Virus record (IMG/VR): IMGVR_UViG_3300021963_000833
Coordinates: 1-20,095 of that record
From: a virus
Length of the DNA stretch: 20,095 nt
Reading direction: 5' to 3' (one strand)
This document shows positions 3,927-18,569 of this stretch, in pieces. The stretch's first letter is position 1. Each line of letters begins with the position of its first letter. Under the pieces are notes generated by a model. The model was not told the DNA's origin. It saw only the letters and a list, made by a program, of their open reading frames with translations, and searched no databases. Made by a program: the position numbers and the translations under genes.

Positions 3927-3934
3927 TATAAATA
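3927..3934 (+). promoter_or_regulatory. T4-type late promoter (TATAAATA)
   Basis: Perfect TATAAATA, 10 bases after the stop of the 542-aa gene and 25 bases before the ATG at 3959. Confidence 0.8.
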
Positions 3935-3958
3935 TAAAAAGATCCTTGATATTATTTG

Positions 3959-5491
3959 ATGAAATCTCAATTCACCAAATTTACTCATAAAACCCCACAT
4001 CTTGGGAAAAAGCAACATCAGCTTGATCCTAACTTGGATATGAAACAATTGGTTCATCATGCAACTGTTCAGTATGTTGATCGTGATGCTGATGGAGATG
4101 TGGATATTTACGATAATCCGAAAAAACCAGTTCCTGATGAAAATCCAATCAAAGATTTTGGAAAAGTTTCTAAAACTCTGATGGCAAAGCAAAAAGGAGA
4201 AATTAAGCATACTCGTAGAGGTATGGCTTATGAAGATCTTCGTAAGTGGTTTGGGACTGGTGGAGAAGGTGGTGTAGGTGGTGGTGGATGGGATCGTTAT
4301 AATACTAAAGGTGAAAGAATTGGTAAGTGTGCTCGTGAACCTGGAGAGGGTAAACCAAAGTGTCTATCAAAAGAAAAGGCAGCAAAAATGTCTAAGGATG
4401 AGATTGCTGCTGCTGTAAAAAGAAAAAGAAAATCTGATCCAGTAGCAGATCGTCCAGGGAAAGGAGGAAAACCAAAGATGGTATCTAATAAAATCAAAGA
4501 AGAAGCACATGAGTCTTCTCTTCCTGATTGGAATGGACCGATGTTCTCTTTAAATGAGAAGAGATTTTGTCCAAAATGCCAAAAGAATGAAACACAGATG
4601 GAGTGTAAATATGGTCCAAAATATTGGGCATTATATTCATTACCATCATCAATCGTCACTAATCAAATGAAATATGATATTGCACAACTACATCCAGCAA
4701 ATGAAGAGAAAGATCCTTGCTGGACAGGATATAAACAAGTTGGTATGAAGAAGAAAGGTGGAAAAAAAGTTCCCAACTGTGTTCCTGAACATACTGGAAT
4801 TGTGGGTAAAATTCTTGAGCAGATTGCTGGTGAAGAAGAACTTCAGACTCTTGAAGAAAAGAACGTTCCAACAAATCCTGCTCTCTGGTCTAAGATGAAG
4901 TCAAGAGCAAAGGCAAAGTTTGATGTTTATCCATCTGCTTATGCTAATGGTTGGGCAGCAAAAGAATATAAGAAAGCAGGTGGTGGATGGAAGTCCGTAA
5001 GTGAGGAAACTGAACTTGAAGAGGCAGTAAGAATTCCAGCAAAAACTGGAAATCTTATTCATATAATGTTGACTTGGAAGGGAAAATATTATTCACTCAA
5101 AATGTTCTTCCCACAAGTGTCTGTCCCAAGTAGAAAAGATGTTCAGGATCAGATCGAAAAGATATATCCAGGATCTAAAGTCCAGTCCTATCATGTGGCA
5201 GAGTATCAACCAGGGGAACCAATTGTTTATACTGAAGATTGGCAAAAAGTAAACAAACAAGATAAAACTGATGGAATGAGTCCTGCAGCAGTTAAAGCAT
5301 ATCGTAGAGAAAATCCGGGTTCAAAATTAAAAACCGCAGTTACAGGAAATCCAAAACCCGGAAGTAAAGATGCAAATCGTAAAAAGTCTTTTTGCTCAAG
5401 ATCTGCTGGCCAAAGAGACATGCACAATATAGATTGTTCCAAAACTCCAGATAAACCAATTTGTAAAGCAAGAAGAAGGTGGAAGTGTTAA
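3959..5491 (+). CDS. Cysteine-rich multidomain cyanophage protein, unknown function
   Basis: A 510-residue, highly basic protein. I chose ATG 3959; a TTG one codon upstream is possible. Modules in order (residue numbers approximate): an EF-hand-like acidic loop (about 41-50, DRDADGDVD); a conserved-looking segment (about 90-180) with MAYEDLRKWFG, GGWDRYNTKGERIGKC and KPKCLSKEKA, rich in Lys/Arg; a CPKC...C zinc-finger-like cluster (about 204-216); a C-W-x-G-Y...K-V-P-N-C module (about 254-274); a FDVYPSAYANGWAAKEYKKA segment (about 321-340); a YPGSxVQ domain (about 368-414) shared with the 106-aa protein at 5945; and a Cys-rich tail (about 478-510, FCSR...CSK...CKARRRWKC). I recall several of these segments from hypothetical proteins of T4-like cyanophages but know no function. 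Position in the late cluster suggests a virion or assembly role. Confidence 0.75.
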   Translation: MKSQFTKFTHKTPHLGKKQHQLDPNLDMKQLVHHATVQYVDRDADGDVDIYDNPKKPVPDENPIKDFGKVSKTLMAKQKGEIKHTRRGMAYEDLRKWFGTGGEGGVGGGGWDRYNTKGERIGKCAREPGEGKPKCLSKEKAAKMSKDEIAAAVKRKRKSDPVADRPGKGGKPKMVSNKIKEEAHESSLPDWNGPMFSLNEKRFCPKCQKNETQMECKYGPKYWALYSLPSSIVTNQMKYDIAQLHPANEEKDPCWTGYKQVGMKKKGGKKVPNCVPEHTGIVGKILEQIAGEEELQTLEEKNVPTNPALWSKMKSRAKAKFDVYPSAYANGWAAKEYKKAGGGWKSVSEETELEEAVRIPAKTGNLIHIMLTWKGKYYSLKMFFPQVSVPSRKDVQDQIEKIYPGSKVQSYHVAEYQPGEPIVYTEDWQKVNKQDKTDGMSPAAVKAYRRENPGSKLKTAVTGNPKPGSKDANRKKSFCSRSAGQRDMHNIDCSKTPDKPICKARRRWKC

Positions 5492-5539
5492 TTCATACCT
5501 TTTTCATTACATAAATAATTGTAAAGAAAAAGGTATGAA
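5492..5539 (+). promoter_or_regulatory. RNA hairpin sequestering the endo VII/HNH start codon
   Basis: A perfect 14-bp inverted repeat: left arm 5492-5505 (TTCATACCTTTTTC), right arm 5526-5539 (GAAAAAGGTATGAA), loop of 20 bases. The ATG at 5535-5537 and the purines before it lie wholly in the right arm. The left arm begins directly after the stop codon of the upstream gene. A read-through transcript could fold and hide the start. A transcript begun at the late promoter in the loop (5510-5517) would lack the left arm and stay open. The same arrangement is documented for T4 genes e, soc, 49 and I-TevI; its function here is inferred. Confidence 0.8.
5510..5517 (+). promoter_or_regulatory. Late promoter in the hairpin loop (CATAAATA)
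   Basis: One mismatch at the least strict position of TATAAATA. It lies inside the 20-base loop, 18 bases before the ATG at 5535. By T4 spacing, initiation would fall near 5523-5525, giving a leader of about 10 bases without the left hairpin arm. Confidence 0.7.
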
Positions 5540-5945
5540 CACCAAAATTTGTACTAGATGTAAAGAAGAAAAATCGAGAGATACTATAAGTTTTCCCCCA
5601 CACAATAAATGTAAAGATGGTCTAGATAGTTGGTGCAGAAAGTGCAGAGCAACTTACAGGTCAGAAATATGTAGAGGAAAATTTAGAGGTCAATTATCTG
5701 ATGATAAAGTGAGAGAATTAAAAAAACAAGAAAAATGTGATATATGTGGCGGTAATGAATTTGCAGGATCTAGAAATAATATTCATGTCGGAAAAGTATA
5801 TGCGCTGGTAATGGACCATAATCATACTAGTGGAAAATTTCGAGGAATGCTGTGCAATCATTGCAATAGAGGGTTAGGAAATTTCAAGGATAATATAAAT
5901 ACTTTACAGGCAGCAATAGAGTATTTAAAAGAAAGAGATAAGTAA
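5535..5945 (+). CDS. Recombination endonuclease VII-like HNH nuclease
   Basis: A 136-residue protein of the T4 gp49 (endonuclease VII) type. The N-terminal part has its own zinc-ribbon-like pairs, C6-x2-C9 and C34-x2-C37 (the second within SWCRKC). The catalytic part has C68-x2-C71, DHNH at 94-97, then the GxxRGMLCNHCNRGLG pattern with C107-x2-C110 and N111, followed by a helix (LQAAIEYLKER). In T4 endo VII four cysteines hold one zinc and an Asp-His/Asn set binds the metal that cuts branched DNA; the equivalent residues are present. It may be a free-standing homing-type nuclease or a Holliday-junction nuclease; the N-terminal ribbon and the odd location favour a mobile gene. The last base of its TAA (5943-5945) is the A of the next ATG. 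Translation is probably gated by the hairpin at 5492-5539. The SD match is weak and very close to the start. Confidence 0.85.
   Translation: MNTKICTRCKEEKSRDTISFPPHNKCKDGLDSWCRKCRATYRSEICRGKFRGQLSDDKVRELKKQEKCDICGGNEFAGSRNNIHVGKVYALVMDHNHTSGKFRGMLCNHCNRGLGNFKDNINTLQAAIEYLKERDK
5894..5901 (+). promoter_or_regulatory. Late promoter inside the HNH reading frame (TATAAATA)
   Basis: A perfect TATAAATA within the codons for D-N-I-N-T near the 3' end of the nuclease gene, 44 bases before the ATG at 5945. No other late motif was seen before the next genes, so it may drive 5945-6265, 6270-7859, gp17 and the zinc-ribbon gene independently of the nuclease. Confidence 0.65.
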
Positions 5946-6265
5946 TGAAATCATTTAAACAGTTTTTATCAGAGAGTATCAATATCTCTGGAGATTTCAA
6001 CGGAACTCTGATTGTTGGTGGCAACAATCATCAAGAACCTCAAACTGAAGAGTTTTCTGCCGATATTGTTTATATGGGAAACATTCATAGAATCTCTATG
6101 GTAACTGAGAATGGGGTTCCTACAAAGAACGAACTGACTCAGTATCTTCAAGACGAGTATCCGGGTTCTATCGTTCAGAATATATACGTTAAGGAAAACT
6201 CAAAAGGTTCTATCAGAATAAAAGACGATAAAAGATACCATCCTGCAAAATTAGATTGGATTTGA
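5945..6265 (+). CDS. Small protein with capsid-targeting-like N terminus (possible internal head protein)
   Basis: A 106-residue protein. It begins MKSFKQFLSESIN, which resembles the capsid targeting sequence of T4 internal head proteins (MKTYQEFIAE, cut by gp21 after the Glu). Cutting after E10 would fit the L-x-E rule seen in gp22 and gp23 here. Residues 45-82 (from GNIHRISM through DEYPGSIVQNIYV) align with residues about 375-413 of the Cys-rich protein at 3959, sharing G..., M, VP-x-K/R, YPGSxVQ and a final V. The product may be carried inside the head and enter the host with DNA, or be part of the core. Translation can be coupled to the nuclease gene through the TAATG overlap. It has its own late promoter at 5894. 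The domain's function is unknown. Confidence 0.65.
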   Translation: MKSFKQFLSESINISGDFNGTLIVGGNNHQEPQTEEFSADIVYMGNIHRISMVTENGVPTKNELTQYLQDEYPGSIVQNIYVKENSKGSIRIKDDKRYHPAKLDWI

Positions 6266-7863: not shown

Positions 7864-9510
7864 ATGAGTGACGTATATCTTGGCAATCCACTTCTTAAGA
7901 AGGCTAATACTCCTATTGAGTTTACTCAGGATCAAATTCTTGAGTTTGTAAAGTGTAAAGAGGATCCAGTATATTTTGCAAAGAACTATGTAAAGATTGT
8001 GACTCTGGATAAGGGACTACAACCTTTTCAGATGTATCCCTTTCAAGAGAAGTTAGTCAACAACTTCCACAATCACAGATTTAATATCTGTAAGATGCCT
8101 AGACAGACTGGTAAATCAACCACTGTTGTGTCCTTCCTGCTCCACTATGCCGTCTTTAATGATAATGTGAACATAGGTATCCTTGCAAACAAAGCAGCAA
8201 CTGCGAGGGAACTCCTGGATAGGTTACAGACTGCATACGAAAACTTACCTAAGTGGATGCAGCAGGGTATTATATCTTGGAATAAAGGTTCTTTGGAATT
8301 AGAGAACGGTTCTAAGATTCTTGCTGCTTCTACATCAGCATCTGCTGTCCGAGGAATGTCATTTAACATTCTGTTCTTGGACGAATTTGCGTTTGTTCCA
8401 AACCATATTGCAGATTCTTTCTTTGCATCTGTTTATCCCACTATTACTTCAGGTAAAAGCACGAAAGTAATTATCGTTTCTACACCACACGGTATGAATC
8501 ACTTCTACCGAATGTGGCATGATGCTGAGAAGAAGAAGAATGAGTATATTCCAACTGACGTTCATTGGAGTGAGGTTCCTGGTAGGGATGAAGTTTGGAA
8601 AGCACAAACAATTGCTAACACATCAGAACAGCAGTTTAAGGTTGAGTTTGAGTGTGAGTTCTTAGGATCTGTTGATACTCTGATTGCTCCCAGCAAACTT
8701 AAGAGTTTGGTTTATGATCATCCACTCAAACGAAGTGCTGGATTAGATGTTTATCAAGATGTAAAAGAAAATCATGATTATGTAATCACTGTTGACGTTG
8801 CTCGTGGTGTTGGAAATGATTATTCTGCATTCACAGTTATAGATATCACAACATTCCCACATAAGGTAGTTGCAAAGTATCGGAACAACGAAATCAAACC
8901 AATGTTGTTCCCAAGTATTATTGTCGATGTAGCAAAGAATTATAATGACTCTTATATCTTATGTGAGGTAAATGATGTTGGCGATCAAGTAGCAAGTATT
9001 GTTCACTATGACCTAGAATACAACAACCTTCTTATGTGCTCTATGCGTGGCAGAGCAGGACAGATTGTTGGGCAAGGATTCTCTGGAAAGAAAACCCAAC
9101 TTGGGGTAAAAATGTCCAAGACGGTTAAAAAAGTTGGTTGTTTAAACCTCAAGACGATGATTGAGGAAAACAAACTTCTCATTAATGATTATGAGATTAT
9201 CGCAGAACTCACAACCTTTATTCAAAAGCATAACTCATTTGAAGCTGAAGAAGGTTGTAACGATGACTTAGCTATGTGTCTCGTGATCTATGCTTGGTTA
9301 GTTGCACAAGATTACTTTAAAGAACTTACAGACCAAGACGTTCGTAAGAGAATCTATGAAGAACAGAAAAATCAAATCGAACAAGACATGGCACCGTTTG
9401 GATTCATCGTTGATGGATTGGATGGAAACAGTTTTGTAGATTCTGAAGGAGATCGTTGGTATGCCGATGAATATGGAGATAGATCATATATGTGGGAGTA
9501 TCTATCCTGA
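7864..9510 (+). CDS. 17: Terminase large subunit gp17
   Basis: A 548-residue DNA-packaging motor. The ATPase domain has Walker A at 80-86 (RQTGKST), Walker B at 168-175 (NILFLDEF, D173/E174) and the coupling motif STPHG at 206-210. The RNase H-like nuclease domain has its acidic residues at D311 (YVITVDVARG), E368 (LCEVNDVGD) and D467/D468 (CNDDLAMC). Length is a little under T4 gp17 (610). It pumps DNA into the prohead through the portal and cuts the concatemer. GAGG at 7851-7854 lies 9 bases before the ATG, within the 3' end of the previous gene. No late promoter lies just upstream, so it is probably read from 5894. The small-subunit gene 16, adjacent in T4, was not recognised here. No intron or frameshift interrupts it. 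Confidence 0.97.
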   Translation: MSDVYLGNPLLKKANTPIEFTQDQILEFVKCKEDPVYFAKNYVKIVTLDKGLQPFQMYPFQEKLVNNFHNHRFNICKMPRQTGKSTTVVSFLLHYAVFNDNVNIGILANKAATARELLDRLQTAYENLPKWMQQGIISWNKGSLELENGSKILAASTSASAVRGMSFNILFLDEFAFVPNHIADSFFASVYPTITSGKSTKVIIVSTPHGMNHFYRMWHDAEKKKNEYIPTDVHWSEVPGRDEVWKAQTIANTSEQQFKVEFECEFLGSVDTLIAPSKLKSLVYDHPLKRSAGLDVYQDVKENHDYVITVDVARGVGNDYSAFTVIDITTFPHKVVAKYRNNEIKPMLFPSIIVDVAKNYNDSYILCEVNDVGDQVASIVHYDLEYNNLLMCSMRGRAGQIVGQGFSGKKTQLGVKMSKTVKKVGCLNLKTMIEENKLLINDYEIIAELTTFIQKHNSFEAEEGCNDDLAMCLVIYAWLVAQDYFKELTDQDVRKRIYEEQKNQIEQDMAPFGFIVDGLDGNSFVDSEGDRWYADEYGDRSYMWEYLS

Positions 9511-9740
9511 TGGACATAGACGGTCAGATTAGACTAGGGCATCTATTATTGAATGATAGGAAGTGTAGAGTATGTGGCGAGGTAAAAAATCTTATTGATG
9601 GTTTTTACAGAACGAGAAAAGATAGGGGTCCGGTCCCATCTTCATATTCTTATGAGTGCAAAGAGTGTACTATTAAAAGGATAATTACTAGTAGAATGGC
9701 ATCAAAAGTTTTGGATAAATGGGAATATCCCGATTGGTAG
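9510..9740 (+). CDS. Small zinc-ribbon protein between gp17 and gp18
   Basis: A 76-residue protein from ATG 9510, whose A is the last base of the gp17 TGA; an in-frame ATG at 9492 would lengthen it by six residues inside gp17. GGGAG at 9493-9497 lies 12 bases before 9510, which favours that start. Cysteine pairs C19-x2-C22 (CRVCGEVKNL) and C50-x2-C53 (YECKECTIKR) frame a basic segment (FYRTRKDRG). This resembles the N-terminal ribbon of the HNH gene at 5535 but has no DHxH or CxxCN catalytic part. It may be a small DNA/RNA-binding regulator or the remnant of a homing nuclease. I believe similar small proteins occur between gp17 and gp18 in other cyanophages, which would favour a conserved role. 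Translation is coupled to gp17. Confidence 0.65.
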   Translation: MDIDGQIRLGHLLLNDRKCRVCGEVKNLIDGFYRTRKDRGPVPSSYSYECKECTIKRIITSRMASKVLDKWEYPDW

Positions 9741-18205: not shown

Positions 18206-18212
18206 ATAAATA
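18205..18212 (+). promoter_or_regulatory. Late promoter (TATAAATA) fused to the gp23 terminator
   Basis: A perfect consensus whose first T is the last T of the terminator tract. Initiation would fall near 18218-18219, after the ATG at 18216, so the HNH gene should start at the ATG at 18237. Confidence 0.75.
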
Positions 18213-18236
18213 AAAATGTTAAATATTGATTGTGAT

Positions 18237-18569
18237 ATGCCAAGACCAACGAACCCAAATATTGGCGAGGATTACATTTCAAAAAATGGTGTAAAAAGAA
18301 ATAAAGAGAAACATAAGTTATATGTGATGAGACGACGTGATGAAAGAAAATTAAAACTCGTAGAACATTTTAATAATAAATGTGGTGATTGTGGAGGAGT
18401 ATTTCCTCCTTGTTGTTACGATTTTCATCATATAGATCCATCATCGAAATCATTTGAGATAGCACCTCGACTTGATGGGAATTTTGAAACTATCCTAAAA
18501 GAAGCAGAAAAGTGCATAATGATATGTTCAAATTGCCACAGAATCCGACATTATAAGGAAAACCGATAA
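18237..18569 (+). CDS. Free-standing HNH endonuclease
   Basis: A 110-residue protein from ATG 18237 (MPRPTNPN). An in-frame ATG at 18216 lies only 4 bases after the late promoter, so transcripts from that promoter could not use it. The HNH (beta-beta-alpha-metal) core has C49-x2-C52 (CGDCGG), FHHIDP at 63-68 with H64/H65 and D67, and C97-x2-C100-H101 (CSNCHRIRH) with H105. The N-terminal part is basic (KRNKEKHKLYVMRRRDERKL) and probably contacts DNA. Free-standing HNH genes between conserved T4-like core genes are usually homing endonucleases that cut the matching site in relatives lacking the gene. It is insulated from gp23 by the terminator and has its own promoter. No relation to the endo VII-type gene at 5535 is evident beyond the fold class. 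Confidence 0.87.
   Translation: MPRPTNPNIGEDYISKNGVKRNKEKHKLYVMRRRDERKLKLVEHFNNKCGDCGGVFPPCCYDFHHIDPSSKSFEIAPRLDGNFETILKEAEKCIMICSNCHRIRHYKENR

What the first reader, a model, noticed from the sequence alone, without database searches (positions are those of the whole stretch)
5492..5539. Hairpin switch hiding the start codon of the endo VII/HNH gene, with a late promoter in its loop
Seen: a perfect 14-bp inverted repeat whose right arm contains the ATG, and CATAAATA in the 20-base loop. Known: T4 genes e, soc, 49 and I-TevI use a hairpin to block translation of read-through RNA while RNA started at a late promoter inside the structure is translated. Gene 49 itself encodes endonuclease VII, the same family as here. 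Inference: the same logic was kept, or evolved again, in a cyanophage homing-type nuclease, limiting it to late infection.
Basis: partly seen in the sequence, partly recalled or inferred. Interest (0 to 1): 0.85.

Follow-up and report, generated by a model that had tools for sequence, protein, structure and literature searches.

The report
Late-promoter hairpin gating a phage nuclease
Just before a small DNA-cutting enzyme gene in a cyanophage, an RNA hairpin appears to hide the gene's start signal unless the message begins at a promoter inside the hairpin; this control trick is known from phage T4, and it is conserved in relatives of this virus and recurs on other mobile nuclease genes in at least one related cyanophage.

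Summary
No perfect 14-bp inverted repeat arose in 200 shuffles. The hairpin is kept in about 20 distinct relatives, with paired length changes in both arms (at least three on the tree) and compensating substitutions. Opening the start region costs 13.6 kcal/mol in read-through RNA against 3.0 in RNA starting at the late promoter, like T4 genes e, 49, segB, I-TevI and I-TevII scored the same way. Best explanation: a T4-type late-promoter/hairpin translation switch, not shown experimentally. In the isolated relative S-SRM01 the same switch is enriched on nuclease genes (7 of 12 against 3 of 57 others). Known mechanism, new members.

The parts
5492..5511 (+). 5' arm of the hairpin (TTCATACCTTTTTCATTACA), starting right after the upstream gene's stop codon
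   Evidence: conserved in relatives
5510..5517 (+). T4-type late promoter box CATAAATA at the tip of the hairpin
   Evidence: 14 copies, all + strand; NATAAATA consensus of cyanophage late promoters, PMC2984593
5512..5519 (+). 8-nt loop
5520..5539 (+). 3' arm (TGTAAAGAAAAAGGTATGAA), holding AAGG and the start codon
5523..5523 (+). predicted late transcript start (+1), leaving a 12-nt leader without the 5' arm
   Evidence: inferred from T4 late promoter geometry; not mapped
5535..5945 (+). endonuclease VII-type HNH nuclease gene, 136 aa
   Evidence: Pfam PF02945 E 1.5e-15; phrog_2633
3956..5491 (+). upstream gene with C-terminal DUF6321 domain; the gene behind whose end the nuclease is inserted
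   Evidence: empty sites
3928..3934 (+). ATAAATA upstream of the DUF6321 gene: probable source of late read-through RNA
5945..6265 (+). downstream gene (phrog_1742); in cyanophages lacking the nuclease it directly abuts the DUF6321 gene

Best explanation
A cis-acting translation switch of the T4 e/49/I-TevI kind. RNA that reads through from upstream carries both arms, folds into a hairpin of about 20 bp and hides the start codon and AAGG, so the nuclease is not translated. RNA started by the late (gp55-type) polymerase at CATAAATA inside the hairpin begins near 5523, lacks the 5' arm and is translated. The nuclease is thereby tied to its own late promoter and insulated from read-through mRNA, whether early or the late mRNA of the flanking virion genes. 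Shown here: sequence, predicted folds, conservation and paired changes. Inferred: promoter activity, start site, translation effect and purpose.
For: Stable hairpin, z -7.75; 0 of 200 shuffles with such a repeat. Genome-wide late-promoter motif, strand-biased, matching the published cyanophage NATAAATA. In 20 distinct relatives nearly all stem cells pair; the T-run of the left arm and the A-run of the right arm have matching length in every one (4/4 or 5/5), with at least 3 changes between the two lengths on the nuclease tree; L020 has two double compensations (A-T to G-C, T-A to A-T) and G-U pairs. Start-region opening cost is 4.8-20 kcal/mol higher in read-through RNA than in late RNA for all 21 hairpin loci, against 1.0-6.3 in four relatives without the left arm. 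The same score gives T4 e 14.5, 49 12.4, segB 11.7, I-TevII 10.8 and I-TevI 8.8; the window's site has 10.6 and is the highest of 14. In S-SRM01, RefSeq-annotated nuclease genes are enriched among high scorers: 7 of 12 against 3 of 57, p 7e-5.
Against: No transcript start or translation data. The region is already a late operon, so the early/late logic of T4 does not carry over directly. AAGG lies only one base from the ATG, a poor Shine-Dalgarno spacing, in the window and its close relatives. T4 soc, a known case, scores only 2.0 with my measure. Several relatives have lost (or never had) the 5' arm and keep the nuclease, so the switch is dispensable. Compensating substitutions rest largely on one locus (L020), and part of the pairing is fixed because the ATG forces CAT opposite.
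Confidence: 0.8

Rival explanations
1. DNA-level dyad: the inverted repeat is a palindromic operator over the late promoter, bound by the nuclease (as I-TevI represses its own late promoter) or extruded as a cruciform that an endonuclease VII-type enzyme cuts.
For: The repeat overlaps the promoter; I-TevI-type autorepression is documented in T4 (PMC2988022); endonuclease VII acts on branched DNA (established knowledge).
Against: The distance between the arms varies strongly among relatives, which would shift operator half-sites around the helix; some G-U pairs are tolerated, though mismatches are about as common; start codon and AAGG lie in the arm in the window type, and AAGG in the offset type (L025, L028, L031).
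Confidence: 0.1
2. The hairpin mainly protects or processes the 3' end of the upstream DUF6321 gene's mRNA and its overlap with the nuclease start is a by-product.
For: It starts directly after the upstream stop codon in the hairpin loci.
Against: No U-tract terminator; cyanophages without the nuclease have no hairpin after the same gene; the hairpin goes with the nuclease and the promoter.
Confidence: 0.08
3. Neutral or chance inverted repeat left by the insertion of the nuclease gene.
For: The hairpin has been lost or gained at least 6 times on the tree.
Against: Paired length changes in both arms, compensation in L020, and its retention in most near relatives; 0 of 200 shuffles.
Confidence: 0.03

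Closest known systems
T4 gene e, 49, I-TevI, I-TevII, segB and Aeh1 mobE late-promoter/hairpin translation switches
   Same: Late promoter inside or beside a hairpin that hides the start region of read-through RNA; mostly homing endonucleases; similar predicted energetics for the T4 members.
   Different: Here in a cyanophage, on an endonuclease VII-type HNH nuclease lying among late virion genes instead of an early or middle unit; not tested experimentally.
Phage T4 gene 49 (endonuclease VII)
   Same: Endonuclease VII-type HNH core (PF02945) and the same kind of leader.
   Different: Shares only about 40 residues, lacks the gp49 C-terminal part (phrog_24351); S-SRM01 has another endonuclease VII gene by gp55 without the hairpin.
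Synechococcus phage S-SRM01 gp207
   Same: 90% identical protein, same site, same hairpin and promoter.
   Different: Perfect 20-bp stem and longer loop; annotated only as (recombination) endonuclease VII; its genome paper mentions neither hairpin nor promoter.

Membership tests
T4-type late-promoter hairpin translation switch | stable stem that hides SD and/or AUG in read-through RNA | tested here: met
   predicted folds
T4-type late-promoter hairpin translation switch | late promoter placed so that its RNA lacks the 5' arm | tested here: met
   sequence and published consensus; start site itself not mapped
T4-type late-promoter hairpin translation switch | structure conserved as pairs in relatives | tested here: met
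T4-type late-promoter hairpin translation switch | gene lies in an early/middle transcription unit (typical, not strictly defining) | tested here: not met
   neighbours are late virion genes by homology, with their own late promoter motifs
T4-type late-promoter hairpin translation switch | translation from late but not read-through RNA | not testable with these tools
   needs infected cells or a reporter
gene 49 orthologs | full-length similarity to T4 gp49 including its C-terminal part | tested here: not met
free-standing homing endonuclease | inserted gene with occupied and empty sites in relatives | tested here: met
   empty sites; displaced gene-tail remnants
free-standing homing endonuclease | cuts the empty site and is copied into it | not testable with these tools
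   biochemistry needed

The most novel reading that the evidence does not exclude
In cyanophages the hairpin/late-promoter module is a general regulatory tag of mobile nucleases (HNH, GIY-YIG, endonuclease VII type), and within late operons it works as an insulator that ties the nuclease dose to one promoter rather than as an early/late timer; a second form encloses an intrinsic terminator together with the promoter.
Probability: 0.4. Interest if true: 0.6.

Novelty: new member of a known kind. Interest (0 to 1): 0.45.

Why it matters
It extends a textbook T4 control device to cyanophages with comparative evidence, suggests that selfish nucleases repeatedly acquire the same restraint, and gives a simple scoring rule (start-region access in read-through against late RNA) that finds such genes from sequence alone. 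The isolated phage S-SRM01 makes it testable.

Tried and rejected
Transcription terminator: none found. Known Rfam family: none in the window. Dispersed repeat: pattern scans of viral contigs found the combination of late promoter and hairpin only before this nuclease; the other matches looked like chance or unrelated repeats. Inheritance from gene 49: rejected. Ancestral promoter of the downstream gene: the empty sites looked at have no spacer or promoter. MAFFT alignment of the arms put the gap out of register, so pairs were counted on a hand-made register, and the count of structure pairs with its shuffles was not run. Primary papers on the mobE and gene 49 hairpins are not held; reviews were used.

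Full report
What is there. The window is part of a T4-like cyanophage late region (tail, terminase, sheath, portal, capsid genes). Between a DUF6321-domain gene (3956-5491) and a small conserved gene (5945-6265) lies a 136-aa endonuclease VII-type HNH nuclease (PF02945). Directly after the upstream stop codon begins an inverted repeat, 5492-5511/5520-5539, 20-nt arms with one mismatch and an 8-nt loop. The start codon (5535) and AAGG are in the 3' arm and CATAAATA (5510-5517) is at the tip. The RNA folds at -24.2 kcal/mol, z -7.75. No perfect 14-bp repeat arose in 200 shuffles.

The promoter. ATAAATA occurs 14 times, only on the + strand, 4.85 expected. NATAAATA is the published late promoter motif of cyanomyoviruses (PMC2984593) and T4 late promoters have the 8-bp box about one helical turn upstream of the start (PMC2988020). 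+1 would be about 5523, so that the late RNA lacks the 5' arm. This is inference; no start was mapped.

Predicted effect. The cost of freeing the start region is 13.6 kcal/mol in read-through RNA and 3.0 in late RNA. Among the 14 ATAAATA sites of the window this is the largest difference (10.6; next 5.6). As a control the same scan of T4 puts e, 49, segB, I-TevII and I-TevI near the top (14.5, 12.4, 11.7, 10.8, 8.8; genes named from their protein starts and my knowledge of T4), which are cases listed in reviews (PMC2988022, PMC3014915), but it misses soc (2.0).

Relatives. Searches of viral contigs gave 66 and then 80 loci, overlapping sets, plus the isolated phage S-SRM01. About 20 distinct loci carry the hairpin with the late promoter between the arms. 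The T-run and A-run have matching length in both arms in every case, with at least three changes of length on the nuclease tree; L020 has two double compensations. In L025, L028, L031 and L137 the nuclease start lies just past the hairpin, which then hides the AAGG. Five loci (L021-L023, L026, L039; three of them alike) have promoter and right arm but no left arm. Distant relatives have neither; in many of them the nuclease start overlaps the upstream stop codon. So the switch looks gained, and later partly lost, in one clade; the direction is not proven by the tree, whose inner forks are weak.

Mobility. In S-T4, DSL-LC02, RN05-S, S-RIM2, S-CAM9 and DSL-LC03 the two flanking genes abut, without nuclease, promoter or hairpin. 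In L021, L133 and L136 pieces of the displaced DUF6321-gene tail lie downstream of the nuclease, and in L031, L035, L036 and L174 the nuclease itself ends in the same W-N-C-stop sequence. This fits insertion of a homing nuclease that supplied a new tail to the target gene. Cutting was not tested.

Generality. In S-SRM01, nuclease genes by RefSeq product name are enriched among genes with a score over 6.5: 7 of 12 against 3 of 57 others (p 7e-5; one of the three others, gp091, has a weak homing endonuclease match). The threshold was chosen after seeing the scores; at 5 and 8 the enrichment also holds, there with gp091 counted as a nuclease. Four of these leaders (gp030, gp066, gp091, gp297) enclose a terminator-like hairpin as well as the promoter (read by eye). 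In B23 the top hit is a GIY-YIG-like nuclease and in DSL-LC02 the second is an HNH nuclease, but both also have non-nuclease hits; S-T4 has none over 6.5 and Syn33's two best are large, probably structural genes. So the tag is clear in one phage and only suggestive beyond.

Interpretation. The mechanism is that of T4; the purpose may differ. T4 cases sit on transcripts of early or middle units. Here the flanking genes are late, so the switch would mainly stop translation from late polycistronic RNA and leave the nuclease to its own promoter. I put 0.8 on the switch itself and about 0.4 on the wider reading (a general tag of mobile nucleases, acting as an insulator in late operons).

Relation to gene 49. 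The protein shares about 40 residues of HNH core with T4 gp49. S-SRM01 has another endonuclease VII gene beside gp55 and the gp46/47-like genes, without hairpin (score 3.0). The likeness of leader and family name is better explained by independent acquisition than by retention.

Novelty. No paper found describes such a switch in a cyanophage, but only an open-access library was searched. A 36-bp inverted repeat in the psbA leader of S-PM2d was noted as a possible light-response element (PMC5931967), which is a different matter. The kind of system is known; these are new members in a new phage lineage.

Noticed in passing
L021, L133, L136 downstream of the nuclease; L031, L035, L036, L174 nuclease C-terminus: Remnants of the displaced DUF6321-gene tail or duplicated W-N-C-stop ends flank the nuclease, suggesting an insertion that replaces the 3' end of its target gene.
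   Followed up: partly
S-SRM01 gp030, gp066, gp091, gp297 leaders (L189, L191, L198): Long-range stems that enclose a terminator-like hairpin and a late promoter before nuclease genes; a composite not seen in the window.
   Followed up: no
L011, L012: Nuclease with an N-terminal zinc-finger-like extension, late promoter but no hairpin.
   Followed up: no
L010 start codon: ATT replaces ATG at the nuclease start inside the hairpin: rare start, dead gene or sequencing error.
   Followed up: no
window 18206-18216: ATAAATA lies only 3 bases before the ATG of a second HNH gene (18216-18569), too close for the usual start; it may serve another start or gene.
   Followed up: no
window 9492-9740: Short endonuclease VII-like gene (phrog_4723) overlapping the end of the terminase gene.
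   Followed up: no
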